From Acidisphaera sp. L21 (GTDB taxonomy: Bacteria; Pseudomonadota; Alphaproteobacteria; Acetobacterales; Acetobacteraceae): 64,000 nt of DNA. Shown here piece by piece: positions 48,135 to 61,933 of the stretch. Within the stretch, counting starts at the first letter, position 1; each line of letters opens with the position of its first letter. The stretch spans positions 58,778-122,777 of the forward strand of contig NZ_LMUY01000020.1 in assembly GCF_009765685.1 (NCBI RefSeq). The letters are read 5' to 3'. A program made the position numbers and the translations under genes. The notes beneath the pieces were generated by a model. That model saw nothing but the letters and a program-made list of their open reading frames with translations, had not been told where the DNA came from and searched no databases.

Positions 48135-51100
48135 ATGTCATCGATGACTCGACCTCAGAAGCGATACGCTGTCGACCAACTCTACTTCACCCATCGCTCC
48201 GCTCGCATTGAAACGAGCGTGTCATCACTCGAGGACTACCTCAAAAGCAGCTTCGTCGAAACGCGCATCATCCATGCCAATGCCAGCCAATCCCTATCTC
48301 AATCCGTGTTACGTCACGCGCCGGGCGTAGTACCGACCCACAACGATGGCGTGGTCATCGCTCACGTCGCCGGGTCGGAGCCGGTGGAGAACCTGGCCGT
48401 TCTGGCGACCCTCTCCGCCCCGATCATCCTGTTCTACCACTCTTCTGCATCGCTCGACTGCACATCGGCTCTCCGCTTTCTCAAGCCGCTCGTCGCCGCC
48501 GCCATCGGGTGCGATCTGCTGGCGACATTGCGACTGCGCACCGCCGGATTTCCGGTCGCCGCCACCTGGCCACTGCGCACGCAACTTCGCGCCACACGGA
48601 CGGCCATGCCAGCCGAGGCATCGCCATTCACCATACTTGTGCCCGGCGACGTCACGTCGGCCCGACAGATCTGCCTGATCATCGATGCGTTCGCCGATTT
48701 CCTGCATCTCTGGCAACAGCCCGCCAAACTCGTCCTCCTGGGACGAACGCTGGAGCCAAAGGCCGCCAAGGATCTGCAGCAGCGGATCACGACGCACGGG
48801 CTGACCGAAAGCGTCACCGTCACCGGCAGCCTTGATGCCGCCCACCGGGAAACCTGTCTCGTCAACGCGAACCTAGGTCTTTTCCTGGAAGACCCGGCGT
48901 CGTTCCCGGACTTCCTGCTCGAAGCGGTGGAGGCTGGTCTGGCGGTGCTGGCGCGTCCCGTTCCGTCCATCACGTTCCTTCTGCAGCCCGCCGGCCTGCC
49001 CCAATCCGCTGCCGACACCACGCCGAACGCTGCGGAGATCGCGCTGCTGCTGCACCATTTCGCCTGCAGCCCCCAAGGCATCGACGATCTGGCGCAGGCA
49101 CAACAGGACAATTTTATCATCGACCCGGCGGTGCGTCCCGAGAGCCTGATCTGGAATGCGCTCGGCCAATGCGGGCTAGCGCTGCCGGCGACGCCAACCG
49201 AGCATGCTGCCATCGTCGCCAAAGCCAGCTTCCTGGTCGCCGGGCATTTCTCCGGCAGCTATAGCCTATCGGCCATAAACCGGCTTCTCGCCTCCTCGAT
49301 CGAGCAGCATTTGCCCGGCCGGGTCGGCGTGCTGCCCGTGCAATTCGAACCGCTCACCACACTCGGCACGATCCCGGCCAACGATGCTGCCTTGATGGAC
49401 GAATTGTTCAAGCGCCCGGGTCGCCTGGGCATCCCGAGGATCGTCATCAGCCAGCATTACCCGCCCTGGCTACCGACGATCGACCATGACTTCGCGATCG
49501 CCCTCTTCGCCTGGGAAGAAAGCCTGATCCCCGCAAACCTCATCCGCAGCCTCAACAAATTCACCGGCGTGATGGCTGCATCGGCCATGGTGGCAAAGGC
49601 GCTGGTCGATTCCGGCCTGCGCGTTCCACTCCGGATCACCGGCCTTGCCATCGAATTGGGTGCCTTTCTGCGGATTGGGGATGAACGCCTGGCCAATGCC
49701 GCGCACGGCATCACTCCCCGGGCGCCGATGGTCTTCCTGCACATCTCGTCCTGCTTCCCGCGCAAAGGCGTGGACCTGCTGCTCGCAGCCTGGGCACGGG
49801 CCTTCACCAGTGCCGACCCTGTGCGGCTGGTCATCAAGGGATTCCACAACGAGCACAATCAAACGGCGGAACAGATCGCAACCCTGTCACTCAGCGACGA
49901 CACTCTTGCACCGATCGAACTGATCAACGAGGAGTTGTCTGCGTTCCAGCTCGCCGATCTCTATCGTGACGCCGACTGCATGGTGCTCCCAACGCGAGGC
50001 GAGGGGTTCAACATGGTCGCCGCCGAGGCAATGGCCGCAAATCTGCCATTGATCGTTACCGGTCACGGCGGACACATGGATTTCGTCGACGCACGATCCG
50101 CCCGGCTTCTCGATTTCACCTTCCGCCCGTCGCGCAGCCACGTCACCAGTGCCCACTCGTTCTGGGTCGAGCCAAGCCTCGGTGATCTGACGCTGGCACT
50201 GCGCGAAGCGCTCGACGACCATTTGGCAGGCGGATCGCAGGCGCTTGAGCGCAGTTCGGCGGCACGGGCGATTGCGCGCCGCCAATTCGACACGCGGGCT
50301 TGGGCGGAACGAACGATCGATGCGTGTGCCGGTCTTATCCAGACACGATCCACGCCGGCTGCTCGTATTGCGTGGCTTTCAAGTTGGGGGATCAGGTGCG
50401 GCATCGCAGAGTATTCGAGATTTCTCCTCGATCATCGCCCGCTTCGCGGGCTGGCAAAAGTGCCAGAGCTCATAGTGCTCTGCGATATCAGAACTGGCTT
50501 CATGCCCTCTATCCCGAAGATCCATGGCGGACGTGTCGTTCCCGCCTGGCACGTCGCCTCCGGTTCAATCGCAAGACAGATTTCCGGCGAGCTCTTGCGC
50601 TCCGAGCCACAAATGCTGGTCATTCAGCACCAGCCTGGCCTTATTTCCTGGCTGGACCTCGTGGAAATCATCGATCTTACGCGGGTTATCTGCATTAAGA
50701 CGGTCGTCACCCTGCACTCGACGGCCAGCATTGCGCTGATCGAAACCGCCCTGCGGGCCTCCGTTCTCCTCGGCCTCGCGGCGGTCGAACGGGTCGTCGT
50801 GCATTCCCTGCATGACCTCGAAACGCTCCGCCGGTTCGGCATTATCCAGAACGTGGCACTCATCCCCCACGGGGCGGGCGTGACGGATATAACCGCTCGG
50901 CGCCCGACGCGAAATCTCACTGCCAGCCCAATCATCGGCTGCTACGGTTTTTTCCTGCCGCATAAGGGCATCGCGACCCTGATCGCAGCATTCGCCCAGA
51001 TCCTGGAGACATGGCCAAGCGCAACTCTCCGACTGGTGAATGCGGAATACCCCAGCCCACTTTCCGCCATCGAACGCAGCACCTGTCAAACTCTGGCACG

Positions 51101-51929
51101 GCAGCTTGCGATCTATGAGTCGATCGAATGGGAACAGGACTACCTGGCCGACACCGACGCGATCGCCCTGCTTGCCGGATGCGACCTGATCGTCATGCCA
51201 TACGGCGCCACCCCCGAATCTGCCAGCGGCGCAGTGCGTCTGGCGTTGGCAAGCGGCGTTCCCGTCGCTGTTTCCATGAGCCCGATATTCGACGATCTGG
51301 GCGGGTCGGTGCACCGGGTCGACGCCACCACGGCCAGTAGCCTCGGCGACGCTATCACGGGCCTCCTCGACAACGACGCCAAGCGTTTGTCTGTCGTGGC
51401 CGCCGCCGAGCAATGGCTGCGCGAACACGACTGGAATGTGGTCTCGGGCCAATTATTCGGCATGATCGAAGGTATCCATCAGCAACCATCCTCCTTCGGC
51501 CGGCAATGGCCGATGGTCTTTGCCGCCGATAGCCCGCTGCTCTTCAGCGTCGTCGGCCTCATGCAAGGCAAGTCGCGTTGGTTCAATGGCATTTCCGAGG
51601 GTTACGGGGTATCCGGCCCCTATATGCGATTGTCGCCGGGCCAGTACACCGTCGAATTCGCCTTCGACAAGCTCTCCGGACTGAGCGGATCTGCCCGGTT
51701 CGAAGTTGCGATGAATGGTGGCTTGGATCCTATCGCGTCTCGCGCCGTCGATTTCGGCCACGAAGCTTGCAATCACCATCGTATCCGTCTCGAGTTTTCG
51801 ATCGACGCCGCCGCGTTGGATGTCGAATTCCGGGTCTTCTGTGACATCGGATTTCGGGCAAAATTCATCGATATCACCGTCGATGTCGATCAGCCCGAAC
51901 GGTATATTAGCGAAGGCATTGACCTGTGA
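48135..51929 (+). CDS. Large multi-domain glycosyltransferase (GT-B / GT4 type)
   Basis: A 1264-residue cytoplasmic protein with at least two and probably three GT-B-like units. Residues about 150-330 look like a degenerate GT4 domain (FTILVPGDV, LVLLGR, VTVTGSLD). Residues about 430-720 hold a full GT4 region (MVFLHISSCFPRKGVDLLLAAW, VLPTRGEGFNMVAAEAMAANLP, with the E-x7-E motif). Residues about 735-1120 hold another (RIAWLSSWGIRCGIAEYSRFLL, CYGFFLPHKGIATLI, and PESASGAVRLALASGVPV, where the first Glu motif is altered). The last 130 residues form a beta-rich module (YGVSGPYMRLSPGQYTVEF). It heads the polysaccharide operon, with GAGGAG before the ATG. Confidence 0.85.
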   Translation: MSSMTRPQKRYAVDQLYFTHRSARIETSVSSLEDYLKSSFVETRIIHANASQSLSQSVLRHAPGVVPTHNDGVVIAHVAGSEPVENLAVLATLSAPIILFYHSSASLDCTSALRFLKPLVAAAIGCDLLATLRLRTAGFPVAATWPLRTQLRATRTAMPAEASPFTILVPGDVTSARQICLIIDAFADFLHLWQQPAKLVLLGRTLEPKAAKDLQQRITTHGLTESVTVTGSLDAAHRETCLVNANLGLFLEDPASFPDFLLEAVEAGLAVLARPVPSITFLLQPAGLPQSAADTTPNAAEIALLLHHFACSPQGIDDLAQAQQDNFIIDPAVRPESLIWNALGQCGLALPATPTEHAAIVAKASFLVAGHFSGSYSLSAINRLLASSIEQHLPGRVGVLPVQFEPLTTLGTIPANDAALMDELFKRPGRLGIPRIVISQHYPPWLPTIDHDFAIALFAWEESLIPANLIRSLNKFTGVMAASAMVAKALVDSGLRVPLRITGLAIELGAFLRIGDERLANAAHGITPRAPMVFLHISSCFPRKGVDLLLAAWARAFTSADPVRLVIKGFHNEHNQTAEQIATLSLSDDTLAPIELINEELSAFQLADLYRDADCMVLPTRGEGFNMVAAEAMAANLPLIVTGHGGHMDFVDARSARLLDFTFRPSRSHVTSAHSFWVEPSLGDLTLALREALDDHLAGGSQALERSSAARAIARRQFDTRAWAERTIDACAGLIQTRSTPAARIAWLSSWGIRCGIAEYSRFLLDHRPLRGLAKVPELIVLCDIRTGFMPSIPKIHGGRVVPAWHVASGSIARQISGELLRSEPQMLVIQHQPGLISWLDLVEIIDLTRVICIKTVVTLHSTASIALIETALRASVLLGLAAVERVVVHSLHDLETLRRFGIIQNVALIPHGAGVTDITARRPTRNLTASPIIGCYGFFLPHKGIATLIAAFAQILETWPSATLRLVNAEYPSPLSAIERSTCQTLARQLAIYESIEWEQDYLADTDAIALLAGCDLIVMPYGATPESASGAVRLALASGVPVAVSMSPIFDDLGGSVHRVDATTASSLGDAITGLLDNDAKRLSVVAAAEQWLREHDWNVVSGQLFGMIEGIHQQPSSFGRQWPMVFAADSPLLFSVVGLMQGKSRWFNGISEGYGVSGPYMRLSPGQYTVEFAFDKLSGLSGSARFEVAMNGGLDPIASRAVDFGHEACNHHRIRLEFSIDAAALDVEFRVFCDIGFRAKFIDITVDVDQPERYISEGIDL

Positions 51930-53746
51930 ATTTCATCCGAAGCCGTGCGCTCCCGGCGGTCTATTTCGACTATAGCGACCTGGTCGAATATTTTCGGCAC
52001 AACCGGTTTCCGACGGGAATCCAGCGTGTCCAGATCGAGTTCTTCAAGGCATCGCTGGAATGGAACAGCCCGACGCCGATCTGCGGCTGCACCTACTCCG
52101 CACGGGCCGGATTCTGGGTAGACATCGACACGATCGGCTTCAGCAAACTCTGCCGGCTTGCCTCGACGCCCGGCAGCCATCTCGACGACGAATGGCAGGA
52201 AACCTTCAACGGCTTCTTGCGCCGTATCGACCAGCGTTCCGCGTGCATCATGCCCGAGGGATCGGCCCTGGTGAACGTCGGTGCGTCTTGGTGGGCAGCA
52301 GATTACATGCCGCTGATCCGGGAAGCGAAGTCACGCTACGGCATTCGGTATATTCCGTTGATCTACGATCTCATCCCCATGATCACGCCAGAATATTGCG
52401 GGCAGGACCTGGTGGCGGCATTTGGCTACTGGATCAACAGCGTGTTCAGCCATGCCGACCTCATCCTGGCCATCTCGAAATCGACCCAACAGGACGTCAT
52501 CAAAGCGGCCGACGGCATCAAGCATCTCACCCGTCAACCGATCATCGTTCCGCTCGACGCCGAATTCGGCATGCAGGACGGCGCCGCCGGAACTGCCGAC
52601 CGTGCCGGCCTACTGGACGGCTTCGGCTTACGAAACGGCTTCTACGTGCTGGTCGTCGGCACATTGGAAATACGCAAGAACCAGATGCTCATCTTCCAGG
52701 CTTGGGCCAAGCTGATCGAACTGCATGGTGCCGCCGCCATGCCCACCCTGGTCTGCGTCGGCAAGATCGGCCACGGCTTCGAATTCGGCCAGAACTTCCT
52801 GCGGTCGCATCCCGAATTGCAAGACAAGGTCATCATGCTCTCCGGCCTATCGGACGTTGAGCTGAATGCGCTTTACGCCGATTGCTTGTTCACGGCCTTC
52901 GCGTCGACCTACGAGGGCTGGGGACTGCCGGTCACGGAAAGCCTCTGCCATGGCAAGGTCTGTCTCTCGGCGGATCACTCATCCCTTCCCGAAGCCGGCG
53001 GCGTGTTCGCCGACTACTTCGAGGCAAATTCAGTCAAAAGCTTCGTGCAGCACGCCGAGCGACTGCTTTTCGACCATGACTACCGGCAGGCGCGTGAACA
53101 CCAGATCGTCGCCGAGTTCCGGCCGCGCCCCTGGCATGACGTCCTGGCCGGCCTGGTCGACGGTATTGAGACCCATTGCGTGGGCTTGGTTCATGCCGAG
53201 CCATTGGTGGCCCCGATATCGTTCGGCGAAATCTATGACATCGGCCAAGATCACCGCGCCCGCCGCCCCGATAAGGAAGGTGCGATCGCAGAAATGCTCC
53301 GCTATGATGGAACCTGGCACCCCCTCGAATCATGGGGGGTCTGGGCGAACAAGAAATACGCAAAGCTGGCATTCCGGCTCCCGCCGCTGGAGGGCCCGGC
53401 CGATGACCTCATCCTCTACCTCAAGCTCTGTGCACCGAATAGCCGCGTCGCGGTCACCGTCAAAGTCGCCGGTCAAACCCAGCTTGTGACGATCGACCCC
53501 GATGAAAGCCTCGCGATACGGCTCCAAATCCCGTTCAAGATCGCGTCGAACCACCAGGATGGCGGCCCGATGATCGTCCATCTCGATATCGACGACCTGG
53601 TTGCGCCTGTCGATATCGCGGACACGCGACGGCTCGGCGTCGGGTTCCAATCCTTCGCGCTCTGCCGAACCGGTGACACCGCTGCAAGGCTCAGGATCAT
53701 CGAACGGAGTATCAAGATGTCCAGCAACCTCGTCGCCGCGGCCTAG
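51926..53746 (+). CDS. GT4-type glycosyltransferase with C-terminal beta-rich module
   Basis: A 606-residue glycosyltransferase. The N terminus carries a motif shared with the next two genes (YFDYSDLVEYFRHNRFPTG, then IQRVQIE). The catalytic GT4 half lies at about residues 240-420: VVGTLEIRKNQMLIFQAW, VIMLSGLSD and the E-x7-E motif in STYEGWGLPVTESLCHGK, then HSSLPEAGG. Residues about 450-600 form the shared module (AIAEMLRYDGTWHPLESWGVW, then LAFRLPPL). There are no TPRs, unlike its two paralogues. The GTG start overlaps the upstream stop (GTGA). Confidence 0.88.
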   Translation: MNFIRSRALPAVYFDYSDLVEYFRHNRFPTGIQRVQIEFFKASLEWNSPTPICGCTYSARAGFWVDIDTIGFSKLCRLASTPGSHLDDEWQETFNGFLRRIDQRSACIMPEGSALVNVGASWWAADYMPLIREAKSRYGIRYIPLIYDLIPMITPEYCGQDLVAAFGYWINSVFSHADLILAISKSTQQDVIKAADGIKHLTRQPIIVPLDAEFGMQDGAAGTADRAGLLDGFGLRNGFYVLVVGTLEIRKNQMLIFQAWAKLIELHGAAAMPTLVCVGKIGHGFEFGQNFLRSHPELQDKVIMLSGLSDVELNALYADCLFTAFASTYEGWGLPVTESLCHGKVCLSADHSSLPEAGGVFADYFEANSVKSFVQHAERLLFDHDYRQAREHQIVAEFRPRPWHDVLAGLVDGIETHCVGLVHAEPLVAPISFGEIYDIGQDHRARRPDKEGAIAEMLRYDGTWHPLESWGVWANKKYAKLAFRLPPLEGPADDLILYLKLCAPNSRVAVTVKVAGQTQLVTIDPDESLAIRLQIPFKIASNHQDGGPMIVHLDIDDLVAPVDIADTRRLGVGFQSFALCRTGDTAARLRIIERSIKMSSNLVAAA

Positions 53747-53756
53747 GGTCGCAATC

Positions 53757-55982
53757 ATGTCCATGCTGCAGGATGATGTCCGCGATCGGGCCGACCCCTC
53801 CCCCGGGTTCAACCATCTCGTCACGCTCGGCGATGCAAGCCGCGACGTCGGTCAATGGATGGAGGCGGCTCACTACTACGAACTGGCCGTCGGCATCCAG
53901 CCCGGCGTCGCCGGCATCTGGGAACAGTTAGGCCACGCCTACAAGGAGCATGGCAGCTTCTCCCAGGCCGGGGCGGCCTATTTGAAGGCGCATAGCCTCA
54001 ATCCCGGCGATGTGGGCCTGCTGGTTCAGCTCGGCCACTTCCACGCCCTTCGGGACGCGACGCCAAAGGCGCTGGATTACTACCAGCGCGCCGTGACCGC
54101 CGGGTCCCAGGACGAGCACGCACTGCGCTATATCGCCCAATCCGTTCATTGCCGGGCGGCGGACCCGGCCCGGCAGAGTGCCAGCACCGCAATCCCCGCA
54201 ATCTACTTCGAATACACCGATCTGCTCGATCATTGCCGGTCGAACCGGACGCCAACAGGAATACAGCGCGTCCAGATCGAACTGTTTCGGGCCTCCCTCC
54301 TATGGGATAGCCCAGTCCCGATCCGCGCCTGCGCCTATGCCGATCAAAAGCGGGGCTGGGTGGACGTCAATCCGGACGAACTTCTGGCTCTGCTCGATCT
54401 AGGCGCCCAGCGCGGCAATGTCGCCGACCCGGATTGGCAGGAAGCACTGGCCCGGTTCTTCACCGCGCTCGACACCCGCGCAGCCTGCGTCTTTCCCGTC
54501 GGCGCTGCCTTGATCAACCTCGGCACGTCCTGGGGCATCGAGAACTACATGGCCGCGATCCGGACCATGAAGGCGCGCTTCGGCCTCCGCTACGTCCCAT
54601 TCGTCCATGACCTCATTCCATTGATGACGCCGGAATATGTCGATCACGGTGTGACCGCGGCATTTAACGCCTGGCTCAGCAGCGCGATCCTACACGGCGA
54701 TCTCTTCGCGGTGACGTCCAGTTCCACCAGGAACGACCTGGTCAAGGCCGCGGCCCAGATCCGGCCGCTATCCCATGACCCCATCGCCATGCCGCTCGAC
54801 GCGGCACCCAGCGCGCCGCGCCAGGGCCATGGTGGCGCCCACACCGCGCAAACCCGTGAACGGCTTGGTCTGGCAAATACCGACTTCGTCCTCTTCGTCG
54901 GCACGATGGAGGCGCGCAAGAACCACTATCTCGTCTTCCAGGCCTGGGTAAAACTACTGGCAAGCCACGACCGCTCGGACGTGCCAGTGCTGGTTTGCGT
55001 CGGTAAGCGGGGCTGGAAATTCGAACGCGCCCAAAGCTACCTCGAGGCCCATCCGGAGCTCGATGGCAAGGTGATGATCCTATCCGGGATCTCCGACGCC
55101 GAATTGGCAACGCTTTATGCAGAATGCCAATTCACCCTCTACGCCTCGCTCTACGAGGGCTGGGGGCTGCCCGTGACGGAGAGCCTTCATCACGGCAAAG
55201 CGTGCCTCACCGCCGATCACTCCTCCCTACCCGAAGCCGGCGGCCAGTTTGCCGATTATTACGAGGGCGATTCCGTCAAAAGCCTGACGTCGCAGGCCGA
55301 ACGGCTGATCTTCGATCGCTCCTATCGTGAAAGCCGCGAACACCTGATTGCAACGCAGCGTCAATCCCAAGACTGGCAGACGGCCCTGCAAACGCTTGTG
55401 CTCGCGACCATCAGCCATTTCCCGACCCCTGCCGTGCCCGCCATCTTGGCAGCCCCGATCGTCCCGGCAACCATCTACCGTATAGGAAACCAGCCATTCT
55501 TCCGCCGGCTCGACCGAGGCGCCGCCATCGCCGAGATGCTTCGCGCGGGCGGTGGCTGGTACGGTGTCGATGCAGCAACGGCATGGTCGAAGGACCGTCG
55601 CGCCCGGCTGGCCTTCCAACTGCCACCGGTGGCCGATACCGACCACGTGGTCTTCCTGAAGCTACGCGCCCCGCCGGAGAAGACGTCGCTAACACTATCC
55701 CTGGCAGGCACCTTATCCGCCCGGCTAACCCTACGGCCCGGCGAGGCGCGTATCGTCCGGCTCGATCTCTCCCAGGCCCCGCTCGCCGGCCCATCCACAG
55801 GCGAGCGACCGATCGTTATCCTGCTGCAAGTGGACCAGCTGGTGTCCATGGCGAAATACGATCCAGCGAACACGCGACAGGTCGGCATCGGTGTCGAGAT
55901 GTTCATGGCCTGCGCCGTCGAGGATGACGACGCCCGGCTCGCCATCCTCGAATGCGCGCTGATGACGCTTGAAGATGCCTGA
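53757..55982 (+). CDS. TPR-GT4 glycosyltransferase with C-terminal beta-rich module
   Basis: A 741-residue protein. Residues about 20-125 hold three TPR units (WMEAAHYYELAVGIQPG, FSQAGAAYLKAHSLNPGD, PKALDYYQRAVTAGSQD). Next comes the shared IYFEYTDLLDHCRSNRTPTG motif. The GT4 domain includes FVGTMEARKNHYLVFQAW, VMILSGISD and SLYEGWGLPVTESLHHGK with E-x7-E, then HSSLPEAGGQFADYYEGDSVKS. The C-terminal module is AIAEMLRAGGGWYGVDAATAW, then LAFQLPPV. It starts 10 bp after the previous stop, at an ATG preceded by AGGG; the frame is open upstream inside the previous gene. Confidence 0.88.
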   Translation: MSMLQDDVRDRADPSPGFNHLVTLGDASRDVGQWMEAAHYYELAVGIQPGVAGIWEQLGHAYKEHGSFSQAGAAYLKAHSLNPGDVGLLVQLGHFHALRDATPKALDYYQRAVTAGSQDEHALRYIAQSVHCRAADPARQSASTAIPAIYFEYTDLLDHCRSNRTPTGIQRVQIELFRASLLWDSPVPIRACAYADQKRGWVDVNPDELLALLDLGAQRGNVADPDWQEALARFFTALDTRAACVFPVGAALINLGTSWGIENYMAAIRTMKARFGLRYVPFVHDLIPLMTPEYVDHGVTAAFNAWLSSAILHGDLFAVTSSSTRNDLVKAAAQIRPLSHDPIAMPLDAAPSAPRQGHGGAHTAQTRERLGLANTDFVLFVGTMEARKNHYLVFQAWVKLLASHDRSDVPVLVCVGKRGWKFERAQSYLEAHPELDGKVMILSGISDAELATLYAECQFTLYASLYEGWGLPVTESLHHGKACLTADHSSLPEAGGQFADYYEGDSVKSLTSQAERLIFDRSYRESREHLIATQRQSQDWQTALQTLVLATISHFPTPAVPAILAAPIVPATIYRIGNQPFFRRLDRGAAIAEMLRAGGGWYGVDAATAWSKDRRARLAFQLPPVADTDHVVFLKLRAPPEKTSLTLSLAGTLSARLTLRPGEARIVRLDLSQAPLAGPSTGERPIVILLQVDQLVSMAKYDPANTRQVGIGVEMFMACAVEDDDARLAILECALMTLEDA

Positions 55983-56003
55983 ACCCTCACGAGGCATTCT
56001 CCC

Positions 56004-58265
56004 ATGCCAGAGCTAACGATCAGCTTCCATCTGCCGGGCCGGAAAAGCAGGTTTGCATCGAGGGTCCGGTCGGGCAATGCCGCCCGCGATCTTGCCCTGT
56101 GGTACAAGGCTGCCGAACATTACGGCGAGGCCTTGCAGGTCAAGCCCGATGACGCCGGCATCCTCGTTCAACTGGGCCACGCCCTCAAAGAAGCCGGTGA
56201 TTTCCCCGATGCGGAGCGGGCCTATTTGAAGGCGCTGACGCTCACCCCGCATGACGCCGATCTCCTCGTGCAGCTCGGGCATTTCTACAAGGTCAGCGGA
56301 AACCTCCCCCACGCCCTGGCCCATTATCAATCCGCCATCGAGCATGGTTCGCACGATCCCAATGCCCAAGACTTCATCACAAAGGCCGCGGCCCCTGGCT
56401 CCCATCAGCCTCCTCCATTCCGGATCACTCACCGGCAAGTCCCAGAAGCGGACGCCCGATCAATGGCCGGCCTCGGCGATCAGGTCCCGGCCTTCTACCT
56501 GGACTTCTCCGACCTGGTCGCATATTTCCGCACTGGCCGGTATCCGACGGGCATCCAGCGCGTCGAGATTGAGCTCCTGAAGGCGGTGAAGGACTGGCGG
56601 GGATCAATCCCCCTGCAGCTGTGCACCTACTCTCCGTCGGTCAGCGCGTGGATCGAAGTAAACCCGGATGCGCTTCGCCAGGTTTGCGAACTTGCCGGTA
56701 GGGCAGGGGACCAGCCCGAAACGGTTTGGCTTGCGGCCATCAACCGCTTCCTCACCACGGTCGATGATGCGCCGCCGATGCAGATGGTACGCGGCGGGGT
56801 TCTAGTGAACCTCGCGCCATGGTGGAACATCGACTACATGCTCTACCTTCGCCACGCGAAGAACGTCTTCGGCATCCGTTACGTCCCCGTCATCTACGAC
56901 CTGGTTCCGCTCATCACGCCGGAGTTCTTGCCGGCGAAAATGCCCTCCGAATGCGCTCAATGGCTCGGCGGTGCGCTCATGCATGCCGACGCCGTGGCGG
57001 TCATCTCGTGTTCGACCCGGCGGGACGTCATCAAGGCGGCGCTCGCCGTCCGCCCCGTGGCACGAGAACCGGTCGTCATGGCGCTCGATGCCGATTTCAG
57101 CGCAGTGCAACTCGGCCTCTCCGTGACCGAGCATCGAAGCATTCTGGAACGGCTGCGGGTGGCCGGTCGTTTCGTTCTATTCGTCGCCACGCTGGAGGCC
57201 CGCAAGAACCACCTCGTGGTCCTTCAAGCCTGGGCCCGCTTGATCGCGCAAGAGGGTGCGGACGCCATCCCGTCCCTGGTCTGCGTCGGAAAGGCCGGAT
57301 GGCAGTTCGATCAAACCCAAGCCTTCTTGAACGCGCATCCCGACGTCGCGGACAAGGTCATCCTCCTGTCGAAGGTTTCGGATGGCGAGCTCAGCAGCCT
57401 ATATTCGAATTGCCTGTTTACAATCTACTCCTCGACCTACGAGGGCTGGGGCCTGCCAATCACCGAAAGCCTTTGCTACGGCAAGGCCTGCGTCACCTTG
57501 AGCCATTCCTCCCTGCCCGAAGCCGGCGGCAAATTCGCGGATTATTGTCCCGCGGACTCGGTCAAAGCCGTCGCGGAGACGGCTTGGAGGTTGATGTCCG
57601 ACGATCCTTACCGGGCGTCGCGGGAGGCGCTCATCCTCGCCGAATATCATCCGCGCACATGGCAGGACGTCCTCTCGGGCCTGGTCTCGGGCGTCGCTGC
57701 CCAACTATCCGGCGCGGCCGACCCGCAGCGAATGTTCGCCCCTGTGGCCTTTGGCGAAATCTACCCCCTACGCCTGAACTATGATTTACGCGCCGCCGAC
57801 CGTCGGTCCGCCGTGGCGGAAATGCTGCGGCATGAGCTCGGCTGGGGGCGGATGGAGAACTGGGGCACATGGACATCGATGCTCAACGCCTCGCTTGCCT
57901 TCCACGTGCCGGAGTTGGGTGGATCGACATCCGATCTCCTGCTCTACCTCGAAGTGCAATGCCCGCCCGAAACCGTCGTGCTGTCGGTCAAGATCGGATC
58001 CCACCGCCTGGTAAGCACGGTTTTGGAGGCTGGTGAGATGCGGCAATTCCGCCTCTTGCTGCCATTCGTCGCCGTCATGGCATCCATCGGCGCCGACCGC
58101 GCCATCGTATTGATGCTACAGGTCGACCGGTTGATCGACCTCAGCAGCCACGTCGCAGGCGAAGCCCGGCGCATCGGGATCGGCGTGAAATCATTCGCGG
58201 TCATGCAAAGATCCGACACGGCCGGCCGCCTCAGAATGATCGAACGATGCAGCATTCCGGCCTAG
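56004..58265 (+). CDS. TPR-GT4 glycosyltransferase with C-terminal beta-rich module (second TPR paralogue)
   Basis: A 753-residue protein of the same architecture as its upstream neighbour. The TPR units lie at about residues 28-125 (WYKAAEHYGEALQVKPDD, FPDAERAYLKALTLTPHD, LPHALAHYQSAIEHGSHD). The shared motif is FYLDFSDLVAYFRTGRYPTG, followed by IQRVEIELL. The GT4 domain includes FVATLEARKNHLVVLQAW, VILLSKVSD and STYEGWGLPITESLCYGK, then HSSLPEAGGKFADY. The module is AVAEMLRHELGWGRMENWGTW, then LAFHVPEL. GAGG lies 10 bases before the ATG. Likely acts on the same glycan as the other paralogues, with a different acceptor or linkage. Confidence 0.88.
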   Translation: MPELTISFHLPGRKSRFASRVRSGNAARDLALWYKAAEHYGEALQVKPDDAGILVQLGHALKEAGDFPDAERAYLKALTLTPHDADLLVQLGHFYKVSGNLPHALAHYQSAIEHGSHDPNAQDFITKAAAPGSHQPPPFRITHRQVPEADARSMAGLGDQVPAFYLDFSDLVAYFRTGRYPTGIQRVEIELLKAVKDWRGSIPLQLCTYSPSVSAWIEVNPDALRQVCELAGRAGDQPETVWLAAINRFLTTVDDAPPMQMVRGGVLVNLAPWWNIDYMLYLRHAKNVFGIRYVPVIYDLVPLITPEFLPAKMPSECAQWLGGALMHADAVAVISCSTRRDVIKAALAVRPVAREPVVMALDADFSAVQLGLSVTEHRSILERLRVAGRFVLFVATLEARKNHLVVLQAWARLIAQEGADAIPSLVCVGKAGWQFDQTQAFLNAHPDVADKVILLSKVSDGELSSLYSNCLFTIYSSTYEGWGLPITESLCYGKACVTLSHSSLPEAGGKFADYCPADSVKAVAETAWRLMSDDPYRASREALILAEYHPRTWQDVLSGLVSGVAAQLSGAADPQRMFAPVAFGEIYPLRLNYDLRAADRRSAVAEMLRHELGWGRMENWGTWTSMLNASLAFHVPELGGSTSDLLLYLEVQCPPETVVLSVKIGSHRLVSTVLEAGEMRQFRLLLPFVAVMASIGADRAIVLMLQVDRLIDLSSHVAGEARRIGIGVKSFAVMQRSDTAGRLRMIERCSIPA

Positions 58266-58291
58266 CCAGGCCGGTCGCGGGAGATGGCTGA

Positions 58292-59557
58292 GTGAATGAG
58301 ATGAGCGTGATCGACAAGCCTGCCTCCAAGATGCTCATCACCGCGGAGCATCTGGACGCCTTCGTCGCCCAAAGTGACGCCTTCGGTGGCCCCGGCAGCC
58401 CGGCGTGCGCTGTGTACTGGTCACGCTTCGAATACCGACCCGGCGTCACCGTCGATCAAACCATCGATCCCTACGGAGAAACCTACGTCCAAGCCCAGCT
58501 GGCGCTCTACGAGGAGATCGCCGGCCGCAGCTTCAACCAGGCAACCAACGAGCACACGCCGTTCGACGTCTCGCGCCATGTGGCGGCGGTCAATCCGTAT
58601 GATCATGCCGATCCATCAGCCCTCGCCGTCCATACCGAGCGGCTTTCGCGGGCATTTCGCCTGGCCAAACTGCCGCGCGACGGTCGGCTACTCGACCTCG
58701 GGTGTGGCTGGGGATTATCGTCCGAAATCGGCGCCTATCTCGGCCTGAAGGTCACGGCGGTCGACATCAACCCCCTGTTTGTCAACCTGGTAAACCAGCG
58801 GGCGGAACTCGGTCGCCGGGCTATCACCGCCACGACGTCCAGCTTCGATGATTTCGATGCGCCCGAAACCTACGACATGGTGCTATTTTACGAGTGTCTT
58901 CACCATGCGCTCAAACCATGGGACGTTATCGAGAAATTCCGTAAGATGTTGGCGCCGGGTGGCAAGATCGTGCTGACCGGGGAGCCGATCAACAAGCTCT
59001 GGTGGCGCCATTGGGGCATCCGGCTTGACCCGATTTCGGTATATTGCGTCCGCAAATTCGGATGGTTCGAAAGCGGCTGGTCGCTCGACTTCATCCGGGA
59101 GGTCTTCCGCCGGGCCGGCATGAAATGCATCGCAGACCGAGGCTCCGACGAGGAAATTGGGTACACACTCGTCGCGCAAATGTCGGACTTGAGCCAGATC
59201 CTGGCAACCGAGATGGCCGAATACTGGGACAGCCAAGGCTTCACGCCGGATGCGGAATATCTCGTTTTCTCCGGCCATGGTTGGCTCGAGATCCCCTTTG
59301 CGCCAGACACCGGAGGAATCCGACTGATCCTGCGGAGCTTTCGTCCGGCAAAGGGCCTGGCGACACTTATCCGCATAGGCCAGACAACCGTGTTCGAGGG
59401 AATGTTGCCACCCGGCGACACCGTAATCGATATCCAGGCCGAAGCGGAGGCGGCGCATGTAGAATTTGATAGCGAAGTATGGTGTCCAGACAAAGAAGTC
59501 TACAACGGAGACAAACGTCAAATAAGCTTCCATGTGGTGCGAGCCATCGTCGTGTAG
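58292..59557 (+). CDS. SAM-dependent methyltransferase with C-terminal beta-rich extension
   Basis: A 421-residue class I methyltransferase. The SAM-binding motif I is LLDLGCGWGLSSEIGAYLG (about residues 132-150), with the acidic VTAVDINPL, and DMVLFYECLHHALKPWDVIEKFRKML followed by GGKIVLTGEP. The last 100 residues (GHGWLEIPFAPDTGGIRLILRSF, DTVIDIQAEAEAAHVEF) look beta-rich and may be a sugar- or glycan-recognition extension. It probably methylates a sugar or caps the glycan made by the upstream transferases. GTG at 58292 has GGAG 8 bases upstream; ATG at 58301 is too far from it. Confidence 0.85.
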   Translation: MNEMSVIDKPASKMLITAEHLDAFVAQSDAFGGPGSPACAVYWSRFEYRPGVTVDQTIDPYGETYVQAQLALYEEIAGRSFNQATNEHTPFDVSRHVAAVNPYDHADPSALAVHTERLSRAFRLAKLPRDGRLLDLGCGWGLSSEIGAYLGLKVTAVDINPLFVNLVNQRAELGRRAITATTSSFDDFDAPETYDMVLFYECLHHALKPWDVIEKFRKMLAPGGKIVLTGEPINKLWWRHWGIRLDPISVYCVRKFGWFESGWSLDFIREVFRRAGMKCIADRGSDEEIGYTLVAQMSDLSQILATEMAEYWDSQGFTPDAEYLVFSGHGWLEIPFAPDTGGIRLILRSFRPAKGLATLIRIGQTTVFEGMLPPGDTVIDIQAEAEAAHVEFDSEVWCPDKEVYNGDKRQISFHVVRAIVV

Positions 59558-59611: not shown

Positions 59612-59756
59612 AACGCAGCCATATGACAACGACTTCAGCCCGAACTTCCCAGAAGCTGCAATATACAAAGCTCTGCCGACAATAAACGCCAACGTCTGAC
59701 AGCATCGTCCCGTTTAGACATGCTTGTGTTTTGTGCTTCCACGGAGGCGCAGAGCA

Positions 59757-60965
59757 ATGATTTTCCAAAATACGATTGCCGCGATCGACCATGCGAGCCG
59801 GCCGGCTGAAGCAACCGCACCACAACGCAACACGGGCCGGCGCTTTGTCCTTGGTGCCGCCCTCGGTGGTGCCGCCCTCATCGCAGGCGCTCGCTTCGGC
59901 ATGCTCCCGGCCAAGCCGGTTCCGGCCACAGCGGCTCCGGCTCTGCCGACAGAAGCCGACCTCGGCAGCAACAGCGTGTCTGCCACGTTGGCTACCCACG
60001 TCGAACTCGTTGACTGGAAGGCGTTCCGCGCCAGGTTCATCCGCCCGGACGGTCGTGTTATCGACACTTTCAATCAGGGCGAATCCCACACCGAGTCGCA
60101 AGGGTTGGGAATGCTGTTCGCCGCGTCGTTTGACGACCGTCCAAGTTTCGACCGCATTTGGACCTGGACGAAAGCCACACTCAGCCGCCCGTCGGACGCG
60201 CTATCCGCCTGGCGCTACCTCCCCGGCAGCAGCAATCCGGTCCCAGACATGAACAATGCGACCGACGGCGATATCTACATAGCTGGAGCCTTGCTGCGAG
60301 CCAGCGCCCGGTGGAAGTCGCCCGAGTATCTGGATGCCGCACAGAAAATCGCGGGCGACATCCTGCGCTTGCTCGTGCGCGAGGTCGGCGGCAAGACCGT
60401 CCTACTGCCGGCGGCGGACGGGTTCGTGAAATCCGACTATACGGTCGTGAATCTATCGTACTATGTGCAGCCTCTCCTGGCGGAACTTCAAGAGGCGTAT
60501 CCCTCGCCGCTATGGGAAGCGCTGTTCCGCGACGGCGATCAGCTGCGTCAGTACGCCCGGTTCGGCAAATGGCAGCTTCCACCGGATTGGCTGCGCGTCT
60601 CGGCCGCCAACGGCGCGCTTTCCATCGACAGCGGTCACCCACCCCGCTTCTCCTTCGACGCGGTGCGCGTGCCCCTATTCGTTGCCTGGAGCCGGGGCGA
60701 TCCCCAAGCATTGCAGAGTTTTGTCAACTTCTGGGGTGCAACCCCATCTCGGGCGCCTGCCTGGATCGATCTGGATACGGGTTCATGCGCCCCATACCCG
60801 ATCTCCAAAGGCGTCATGGCGATTGCCCGGCTGAGCGGTTGCGGCCACCAGGTAGAACGCCAAGCAGATTTGCCAGCGATCTCCGGAGATGAACCCTATT
60901 ACTCCGCAGCGTTAATTCTTTTAAGCCGGATCGCCCTGCGGGAGATCAAGCCCAAATTGGTTTGA
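59757..60965 (+). CDS. Glycoside hydrolase family 8 protein (endoglucanase-like)
   Basis: A 402-residue GH8 enzyme; family members cleave beta-1,4 glucan, chitosan or xylan, and one (BcsZ/CMCax) belongs to bacterial cellulose operons. The catalytic acid Glu is in ESHTESQGLGML (about residue 113) and the base Asp in NNATDGDIYIAGALL (about residue 170). The C-terminal half has FSFDAVRVPLFVAW. The N terminus is unusual: about 30 polar residues, then a twin-arginine-like hydrophobic stretch (RRFVLGAALGGAALIAGA) that may be a Tat signal or anchor. GGAGG precedes the ATG. It follows the glycosyltransferases and probably trims or polishes the exopolysaccharide. Confidence 0.86.
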   Translation: MIFQNTIAAIDHASRPAEATAPQRNTGRRFVLGAALGGAALIAGARFGMLPAKPVPATAAPALPTEADLGSNSVSATLATHVELVDWKAFRARFIRPDGRVIDTFNQGESHTESQGLGMLFAASFDDRPSFDRIWTWTKATLSRPSDALSAWRYLPGSSNPVPDMNNATDGDIYIAGALLRASARWKSPEYLDAAQKIAGDILRLLVREVGGKTVLLPAADGFVKSDYTVVNLSYYVQPLLAELQEAYPSPLWEALFRDGDQLRQYARFGKWQLPPDWLRVSAANGALSIDSGHPPRFSFDAVRVPLFVAWSRGDPQALQSFVNFWGATPSRAPAWIDLDTGSCAPYPISKGVMAIARLSGCGHQVERQADLPAISGDEPYYSAALILLSRIALREIKPKLV

Positions 60966-61156: not shown

Positions 61157-61933
61157 ATGACCGAGCTTACTCAAATAGAAACAGATGGCTCAACGCTCAC
61201 CGATATCCTGTTGATCGAAGACGATCCAGCGGTGGCTGAATCGCTTCGCCGGGCAATCGAGCGGAGTGGAATGCAAATGTCCTGGGCGTCGACCGGCCTG
61301 GAAGCCATGACGCTGAAACGGGCAATCAAGCCCCAAATCGTCTTGCTCGACATGAGCCTGCCGGACACGAACGGCATCGTGCTCATCAAATGGCTGGTCG
61401 AGCAGGCGGATTGCGGCGTCATCGTCGTTTCGGGCTCGACCGAGGAAGCCGATCGGGTCGTCGCATTGGAACTCGGCGCGGACGATTACGTCTCAAAACC
61501 ACCAAATATGCGGGAATTAATCGCCCGTATGCGAGCGGTCCACCGTCGCACGCCCATGCGACGCTTGCCTGCGCCCGTTTCCAGCCCGGCGTCCACCGGT
61601 GGTCTGCACCTCGACAGCCATCGCCGTACCGTGCACGGCCCGGATGGGGCACGTATCACCCTCACTGCCGCAGAGTTTGATGTGTTGGAAGCACTGTCTT
61701 TAGCCCGCGGCCAGGTGGTGAGCCGGCATGACCTTTCGACCGGTGCATTGCGCCGGCCATGGCAACCGGACGATCGGAGCGTGGATCAGCTCATCCTCAA
61801 TTTGCGTCAGAAACTGCATCCGGACCCCGACGGAATCAGCTTGATCGAATCTATCCGGGGCAGGGGTTACCTATTGCGACTCACGGCAGATCTCCCCGGA
61901 TCGACCAAAAGTCAGCCCGATCGCAGATCATAA
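61157..61933 (+). CDS. OmpR/PhoB-family response regulator
   Basis: A 258-residue two-component regulator. The receiver domain (residues about 15-130) has the acidic pocket IEDD (20-23), phosphoacceptor Asp65 in LLDMSLPD, the switch Ser/Thr in VVSGS and Lys114 in VSKPP. The C-terminal winged-helix output domain (about 150-245) contains LTAAEFDVLEAL, SRHDLS and the recognition region DDRSVDQLILNLRQKL followed by IRGRGYLL. No histidine kinase lies immediately adjacent; the CheB-CheR fusion downstream may extend into a kinase beyond the window. It could control the polysaccharide genes. Confidence 0.9.
   Translation: MTELTQIETDGSTLTDILLIEDDPAVAESLRRAIERSGMQMSWASTGLEAMTLKRAIKPQIVLLDMSLPDTNGIVLIKWLVEQADCGVIVVSGSTEEADRVVALELGADDYVSKPPNMRELIARMRAVHRRTPMRRLPAPVSSPASTGGLHLDSHRRTVHGPDGARITLTAAEFDVLEALSLARGQVVSRHDLSTGALRRPWQPDDRSVDQLILNLRQKLHPDPDGISLIESIRGRGYLLRLTADLPGSTKSQPDRRS

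What the first reader, a model, noticed from the sequence alone, without database searches (positions are those of the whole stretch)
51926..58265. Three tandem paralogous glycosyltransferases with a shared N-terminal motif and C-terminal module
The genes at 51926, 53757 and 56004 share a 'YFxxSDLVxYFRxxRxPTG-IQRV' entry motif, a GT4 core with EGWGLPxTE and HSSLPEAGG, and a C-terminal segment reading 'AIAEMLR...GW...WGTW...LAF.LP'. Two have an added N-terminal TPR block. Tandem duplication with gain or loss of the TPRs, plus a module that I cannot name, suggests a dedicated glycan-assembly line whose modules may recognise the growing glycan or an acceptor protein.
Basis: partly seen in the sequence, partly recalled or inferred. 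Interest (0 to 1): 0.75.

Follow-up and report, generated by a model that had tools for sequence, protein, structure and literature searches.

The report
Tandem glycosyltransferases with sugar-binding-like tails
Three neighbouring bacterial sugar-transferring enzymes are old duplicates that each end in an extra domain folded like a known sugar-gripping module, which may help them hold the polysaccharide chain they are building, although that binding has not been tested.

Summary
Genes 51926-53746, 53757-55982 and 56004-58265 are tandem paralogues (43-45% identity to the first; a 100* clade in a 113-row tree). All have a GT4 core. The second and third add TPRs. All end in one ~170-residue module. 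The 'entry motif' is no module: it is the first strand-loop-helix of the GT-B fold. The C-terminal segment is a real extra domain: it follows the GT-B fold in the model, a 9-row relative clade lacks it, and alone it is predicted as a beta-sandwich (pLDDT 87.5) like Cry-toxin and CBM29/22/6/35/36 domains (Z 8-10). It is a distant relative of DUF7024 (PF22895), below that family's cut-off but joined to it by bridging sequences, and occurs also on GT2, a methyltransferase, membrane proteins and giant multi-GT4 proteins. Relatives are mainly alphaproteobacterial; 42 of the 80 best loci carry at least one ABC-capsule-export-type gene. Best reading: cytoplasmic capsule/EPS glycosyltransferases whose module grips the nascent glycan or docks partners, and whose TPRs recruit assembly partners. 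Ligand binding is untested. An ordinary enzyme class in an under-described architecture; moderate interest.

The parts
51926..53746 (+). First paralogue, 606 aa (P0001): GT4 core + C-terminal module, no TPR found
53198..53707 (+). C-terminal DUF7024-like / CBM-like beta-sandwich module of the first paralogue (profile hit, residues ~425-594)
   Evidence: weak PF22895 E=0.024; follows the GT-B fold in the model
53757..55982 (+). Second paralogue, 741 aa (P0002): TPRs + GT4 core + module
53814..54131 (+). TPR block of the second paralogue (residues ~20-125)
55443..55964 (+). C-terminal module of the second paralogue
56004..58265 (+). Third paralogue, 753 aa (P0003): TPRs + GT4 core + module
56070..56366 (+). 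TPR block of the third paralogue (residues ~23-121)
57711..58253 (+). C-terminal module of the third paralogue (modelled alone as window 57699-58262)
48135..51929 (+). Upstream 1264-aa protein with three GT4-type stretches; its end overlaps the first paralogue by 4 bases; probable same operon
58292..59557 (+). SAM methyltransferase (421 aa), 26 bases downstream; probable same operon
59724..60965 (+). GH8 glycoside hydrolase (BcsZ-like, below the BcsZ model's cut-off), 166 bases further on; membership of the operon uncertain

Best explanation
A tandem family, private to this lineage in the sample, of cytoplasmic retaining GT4 glycosyltransferases for a capsule or exopolysaccharide. Shown: GT-B/GT4 core with conserved glutamates; TPRs on two of three; a separate C-terminal domain predicted as a beta-sandwich of galactose-binding/CBM-like fold, a distant relative of DUF7024, found on several kinds of glycan-assembly enzyme. 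Inferred: each enzyme adds one sugar or repeat to a lipid-linked chain at the inner face of the membrane. The C-terminal module grips the acceptor glycan beside the active site (substrate selection or processivity), and the TPRs hold the enzymes in a complex with the other GTs. The first copy lost its TPRs, perhaps because it relies on its partners. Within this statement the polysaccharide-GT role is the firmer half and glycan binding by the module the softer half.
For: GT4 core: Pfam above cut-off; full model of the first protein pLDDT 89.4, pTM 0.89, matching MshA Z 30.0, rmsd 4.0, 350 aligned, and BshA, HepE, TreT, PimB', WaaG; E330 and E338 in 113 of 113 rows (that these are the E-x7-E catalytic motif of GT4 is recalled). 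Module of the third protein: pLDDT 87.5, pTM 0.84; CBM29 Z 9.4 (rmsd 3.5, 128 aligned), CBM22 Z 9.1 (2.7, 122), CBM6 Z 8.8, CBM35 Z 8.6, CBM36 Z 8.3; BcsB and CBM36 among the Foldseek hits. Link to DUF7024: G005:C36 and G073:C108 are hit by the module profile (4.8e-12, 6.2e-10) and by PF22895 above its cut-off (1.3e-7, 1.6e-5); L131 by both too (3.2e-7; 30.3 bits). Glycan-enzyme company: module on GT4, GT2, a methyltransferase and membrane proteins and on two giant GT4 proteins of the same genome. Context: 42 of 80 relative loci carry at least one of five capsule-export gene clusters in the fetched flanks (up to 6 kb a side), 37 carry two or more. Own genome holds Capsule_synth genes and a KpsT-like ATPase beside a Poly_export gene. 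TPR precedent in capsule polymerases: PMC11666461, passages.
Against: No ligand data. The best structural hits are Cry11Aa (Z 10.0), and non-CBM proteins (a Klebsiella phage depolymerase Z 9.6, an astacin MAM domain Z 9.3, reelin Z 8.9) rank among the CBMs; Z 8-10 is only moderately above the tool's stated typical best of 7-8 for models without a clear match. The profile search of PDB sequences found no natural CBM. phmmer of the third protein lists TPR stretches alone, no GT4 chain, at E<=0.01. No homologue of ten neighbour clusters from relatives' loci (export, Capsule_synth, FkbM, dTDP-rhamnose) lies beside the trio (flippases and polymerases were not searched for). 38 of 80 relative loci show none of the five export clusters, and the 80 loci are not independent (some share a genome or are identical).
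Confidence: 0.55

Rival explanations
1. The C-terminal module is a structural or protein-docking beta-sandwich (dimerisation, or scaffold of the GT complex) and does not bind glycan; the enzymes are otherwise ordinary polysaccharide GTs.
For: The galactose-binding-like fold is also used for protein contacts (recalled), and non-CBM proteins rank among the structural matches. Elements flanking the DUF7024-like core are conserved in this GT subfamily (R459 in 100 of 113 rows, 8 gapped; R588 in 88, 19 gapped), and the full model is confident over core and module together (pTM 0.89; no PAE was given), as if the module were docked on the core.
Against: The same module recurs on different glycan enzymes (GT2, methyltransferase, membrane proteins) and in two or three significant copies on giant GTs, which is easier to explain by a shared ligand type (inference).
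Confidence: 0.3
2. TPR-GT4 proteins here are protein O-glycosyltransferases (surface-layer, flagellin or secreted protein), the TPRs reading the protein acceptor as in OGT/SPINDLY.
For: TPR blocks resemble those of OGT and SPINDLY in sequence.
Against: The best stretch shown for each OGT/SPINDLY chain lies in query residues 23-120, the TPR part; the catalytic core is GT4, and no GT41 model appears among the Pfam hits at E<=1. Many relatives lie beside ABC capsule-export, Capsule_synth and dTDP-rhamnose genes. The first copy has no TPR yet keeps the rest.
Confidence: 0.1
3. The C-terminal segment is the ordinary end of the GT-B fold, so that nothing beyond three tandem GT4 genes is present.
For: GT4 Pfam models stop early, so a tail is expected.
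Against: The model completes GT-B by about residue 421 and adds a separate, mainly beta domain at about 435-606; a 9-row 100* clade of relatives ends after the core; the module occurs on non-GT proteins.
Confidence: 0.02

Closest known systems
Pfam DUF7024 (PF22895)
   Same: Same core signature (GW..xE..G.W and a D.R.lG.g loop, aligned and read by eye); bridging sequences score with both models.
   Different: Window modules are below the curated cut-off (first paralogue 15.0 against 24.4 bits; only 3 of 58 modules match at E<=1, best 0.0023). They carry extra helices before and after the core. The library has no paper naming DUF7024.
GT4 retaining glycosyltransferases (MshA, BshA, HepE, WaaG type)
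   Same: GT-B fold and conserved glutamates and R/K pair.
   Different: Fused N-terminal TPRs (two of three) and C-terminal beta-sandwich; only 9-17% identity to the solved GT4s listed.
TPR-bearing capsule polymerases of ABC-dependent systems (Cps3D/Cps7D, PMC11666461, passages read)
   Same: TPR fused to GT-B-type glycan polymerases of an ABC-exported capsule; there the TPR is needed to extend the linker.
   Different: Those are TagF-like multi-domain polymerases; here a single GT4 core with a CBM-like tail, and capsule-export genes are not linked in this genome. No sequence relation was tested.
CBMs on O-antigen ABC transporters and on terminator ORF6-O7 (PMC11231755, passages read)
   Same: Binding modules attached to cytoplasmic glycan-assembly proteins; the transporter's module recognises the chain end.
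   Different: In the passages read they sit on the transporter ATPase or a terminator enzyme, not on GT4 chain-building enzymes; no sequence relation was tested here.

Membership tests
GT4 glycosyltransferase | GT-B fold with GT4 C-domain (Glycos_transf_1) | tested here: met
   Pfam above cut-off in all three; model of the first matches GT4 structures, Z 23-30 in the 50 rows shown
GT4 glycosyltransferase | E-x7-E and donor-binding R/K residues (motif recalled) | tested here: met
   E330, E338, K251 in 113 of 113 rows, R250 in 112 of 113
GT4 glycosyltransferase | retaining transfer from an NDP-sugar | not testable with these tools
   no assay; donor and acceptor unknown
DUF7024 (PF22895) | score above the curated cut-off | tested here: not met
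   15.0 bits against 24.4 in the first paralogue, no match at E<=1 in the other two; own genome has no match over the cut-off
DUF7024 (PF22895) | homology through intermediate sequences | tested here: met
   G005:C36 and G073:C108 hit by both profiles, over the Pfam cut-off; scanned as proteins, L168 (G005) 30.1 and L131 30.3 bits are over it, L165 (G073, methyltransferase) 23.7 is just under
Carbohydrate-binding module | beta-sandwich (galactose-binding-like) fold | tested here: met
   prediction only: (Z 8.3-9.4 to CBM29/22/6/35/36)
Carbohydrate-binding module | sequence membership of a catalogued CBM family | tested here: inconclusive
   no natural CBM in the profile search of PDB sequences; no CBM family among the Pfam hits of 58 modules; CAZy not available
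Carbohydrate-binding module | binds a glycan | not testable with these tools
   needs a binding assay
TPR protein | TPR repeats | tested here: met
   second and third paralogues; not found in the first. In the family TPR_2 hits 21 of 28 rows, and 87 of the 102 N-termini of 30 aa or more (113 rows in all) match a TPR-region profile built from eight of them
OGT/SPINDLY (GT41) protein glycosyltransferase | GT41 catalytic core | tested here: not met
   no GT41 model among Pfam hits at E<=1; best stretches to OGT/SPINDLY lie in the TPRs; core is GT4
ABC-dependent capsule locus | export genes (KpsM/T/E/D-like, KpsC/S) in the same locus | tested here: not met
   no homologue beside the trio in the window or on L136, which runs on to C75:130000; homologues on other contigs of the genome

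The most novel reading that the evidence does not exclude
The DUF7024-like module is a general 'nascent-glycan grip' of polysaccharide assembly: one fold reused on GT4, GT2, methyltransferases, membrane enzymes and, in two or three copies, on giant multi-GT proteins. Tandem copies such as this trio then form a relay in which each enzyme's module recognises the product of the one before.
Probability: 0.22. Interest if true: 0.65.

Novelty: new variant of a known kind. Interest (0 to 1): 0.42.

Why it matters
To my knowledge it is poorly understood how cytoplasmic glycosyltransferases of exported polysaccharides choose and hold the right chain. This architecture (TPR-GT4-CBM-like module), annotated where plasmid records have annotation as plain 'glycosyltransferase', gives a compact, testable case. 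The module is small, predicted confidently, and related to DUF7024, a family that no paper in the library searched names.

Tried and rejected
Considered and rejected: (1) ordinary GT-B end. (2) N-terminal motif as a recognition module: the model shows it as strand 12-15, helix 17-25, loop, helix 32-44 of the GT-B N-domain, and it is family-wide. (3) Assembly artefact or recent duplication: the copies are only 43-45% identical to the first. (4) The trio as part of a linked capsule locus: no homologue of the relatives' export genes beside it.

Led nowhere: profile search of PDB sequences with the module; its best hit (8bl6, E 4.5e-5) is a designed protein, and I give it no weight. Sequence searches with the tails of the upstream GT (no hit) and the downstream methyltransferase (ubiquitin chains, best stretch 22 residues, which I judge spurious). 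Paper searches returned nothing; the titles and abstract starts listed by 58, 80 and 84 did not describe this architecture. Only passages of PMC11231755, PMC11340318 and PMC11666461 were read; the passages of PMC11340318 describe Wzx/Wzy clusters. A phylum-wide search found 3 of 249 genomes, own included, with a module match, but scored at most 13 candidates a genome; the family search found 49 of 120, own included, scoring at most 28.

Limits of counts: the 80 loci are the best kept of 291. The 113 rows are the non-identical ORFs with a BLAST score over 190 bits, the three window proteins included. Tails under 130 aa were dropped (12 of 113 rows; L072 and L025 run off contig ends). A2 used 58 of the 101 remaining rows: the genome-search loci, short (144-151 aa) and some overlong tails, one minus-strand row and some near-duplicates were left out. 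A3 used 28 rows. Gene calling was a crude longest-ORF method, and some starts and fusions are wrong (one 'KpsT' query hit a TPR). Neighbour clusters were named from one to three scanned members. The cluster called KpsE/Wzz-like rests on one weak Wzz match (E 1.7e-4); two other scanned members had no informative hit. The comparison of 2 of 12 module-less loci with 40 of 68 others for export genes (the 12 chosen by hand and including L104, L117, L119) is confounded by taxonomy. The tree was a quick one (SH-aLRT only), and the branching inside the trio is open.
Full report
What is there. On the plus strand, 48135-59557 reads as a compact gene run: a 1264-aa protein with three GT4-type stretches, the three finding genes, then a SAM methyltransferase. 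Spacings are a 4-base overlap, then 10, 21 and 26 bases. A GH8 hydrolase follows after 166 bases, and then an OmpR-type regulator. The three proteins (606, 741 and 753 aa) are paralogues at 45% and 43% identity to the first. In a 113-row tree of GT cores they form a 100* clade (quick tree, SH-aLRT). No other genome of the genus is held. In the family search the best match outside this genome is 34% identical to the third copy over most of its length. The duplication is therefore old and, in this sample, private to this lineage.

N-terminus. The 'YFxxSDLVxYFR..PTGIQRV' motif lies in strand 12-15, helix 17-25, loop and helix 32-44 of the modelled GT-B N-domain. It is near-invariant across the family: D18 and R34 in 113 of 113 rows, G31, I32 and Q33 in 112. 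It is a GT-B element and not a separate module.

Core. Pfam places all three in GT4. The model of the first protein (28-row alignment, pLDDT 89.4, pTM 0.89) matches MshA, BshA, HepE, TreT, PimB' and WaaG at Z 24-30, mostly over model residues 6-421. Both glutamates of the E-x7-E motif (recalled as the GT4 motif) are present in 113 of 113 rows, so the cores look competent. A plain phmmer search of the third protein listed no GT4 chain of the PDB at E<=0.01, TPR matches alone.

TPRs. They are found in copies two and three and not in copy one. In the family, TPR_2 hits 21 of 28 rows scanned, and 87 of the 102 N-termini long enough to test, out of 113 rows, match a TPR-region profile. N-termini of 100 aa or more (a proxy for TPRs) change state at least 8 times on the tree. 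The trio lies among rows that mostly have long N-termini, so loss in copy one is the simpler reading; the branching inside the trio is open. A TPR-less copy next to a long one is also seen in Gluconacetobacter and Nguyenibacter loci L087-L089.

C-terminal module. The GT-B fold is complete by about residue 421, and a separate, mainly beta domain follows (about 435-606). A 9-row clade of relatives, 100* on the tree, ends without it. The third protein's module, modelled alone on 58 aligned modules, reaches pLDDT 87.5, pTM 0.84. VIA-align gives Cry11Aa Z 10.0 (rmsd 5.2, 154 aligned), CBM29 Z 9.4 (3.5, 128), CBM22 Z 9.1 (2.7, 122), CBM6 Z 8.8 (3.0-3.2, 118-119), CBM35 Z 8.6 (3.1, 113) and CBM36 Z 8.3 (3.4, 119); a phage depolymerase (Z 9.6), an astacin MAM domain (9.3) and reelin (8.9) stand among them. 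Foldseek adds the cellulose synthase subunit BcsB. The tool warns that models without a clear match typically have a best Z of 7-8, so this establishes a common CBM/galactose-binding-like sandwich and not a function.

Naming the module. The first copy alone matches DUF7024, and weakly (E 0.024, 15.0 bits against a cut-off of 24.4); only 3 of 58 family modules match at E<=1 (best 0.0023). The link is nevertheless real: G005:C36 and G073:C108 are hit by the module profile (4.8e-12, 6.2e-10) and by PF22895 above its cut-off (1.3e-7, 1.6e-5). Scanned as proteins, the first keeps its place over the cut-off (30.1 bits, L168) and the second falls just under it (23.7 bits, L165). A GT2 fusion in L131 is hit by the module profile (3.2e-7) and by PF22895 over its cut-off (30.3 bits). 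The module is therefore a distant DUF7024 relative.

Where else it occurs. In the same genome it is found in two giant GT4 proteins: the 1752-aa one has three significant copies and one insignificant stretch, the 1864-aa one two significant copies and two insignificant stretches. It is also in a polytopic membrane protein (membrane stretches by a crude hydropathy scan). In other genomes it is on GT4, GT2, a methyltransferase and further membrane proteins. A profile match at E<=0.001 occurs in 49 of 120 genomes of the bacterial family, own included. Of 82 aligned rows from the 80 named loci, 78 are alphaproteobacterial by their record titles, mainly Sphingomonadales, Acetobacterales and Caulobacterales. 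A beta-sandwich carried by glycan enzymes of different chemistry fits a shared glycan ligand better than an enzyme-specific structural role, but this is inference.

Context. Of the 80 relative loci (the best of 291), 42 carry at least one, and 37 at least two, of five clusters taken as ABC-capsule export genes (ABC2_membrane, ABC_tran, Capsule_synth, Poly_export and a Wzz/KpsE-like cluster); 20 carry dTDP-rhamnose genes and 29 have neither. The loci are not independent: some share a genome or are identical. Beside the trio no homologue of these genes was found (flippases and polymerases were not searched for). The genome does hold Capsule_synth genes on contig C118 and a KpsT-like ATPase beside a Poly_export gene on C155. 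The genes may thus feed a capsule or EPS pathway whose export machinery is unlinked.

Mechanism proposed. Cytoplasmic GT4 enzymes extend a lipid-linked glycan; the module grips the acceptor next to the cleft; TPRs tie the enzymes together. A precedent for the TPR part is the App3/App7 capsule polymerases, where TPR truncations no longer markedly extend the linker made by transition transferases (PMC11666461, passages). CBM modules on cytoplasmic O-antigen proteins are described in PMC11231755 (passages). Nothing in the passages read, nor in the titles and abstract starts listed by paper searches, describes this architecture; searches returned nothing. These cover only open-licence PMC papers.

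Verdict. Observation confirmed. An ordinary enzyme class in an under-described domain architecture.

Noticed in passing
48135-51929: 1264-aa protein with three GT4-type stretches and a C-terminal ~130-residue tail that reads beta-rich by eye; no PDB sequence match for the tail.
   Followed up: partly
58292-59557: Methyltransferase with a ~140-residue C-terminal extension beyond the Methyltransf match; only spurious-looking ubiquitin matches for its last 119 residues. All five genes of the run 48135-59557 thus carry an extra C-terminal part.
   Followed up: partly
L134:7267-12522 (-) and L133:6202-11793 (+), same genome: Two giant GT4 proteins (1752 and 1864 aa) with three GT4 stretches each and three and two significant copies of the DUF7024-like module, plus one and two insignificant stretches.
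   Followed up: partly
L135:3332-5527 (+), same genome: Polytopic membrane protein (7 hydrophobic stretches by a crude scan) ending in a DUF7024-like module.
   Followed up: no
61157-61933 and L136:8914-13347: OmpR-type response regulator followed by a large CheB-CheR-PAS-kinase-receiver-LuxR hybrid (1477 aa) right after the glycan genes; possible regulators.
   Followed up: no
59724-60965: GH8 hydrolase related to BcsZ but well under that model's cut-off (137.9 against 299 bits); no cellulose synthase subunit among the six proteins scanned with it.
   Followed up: no
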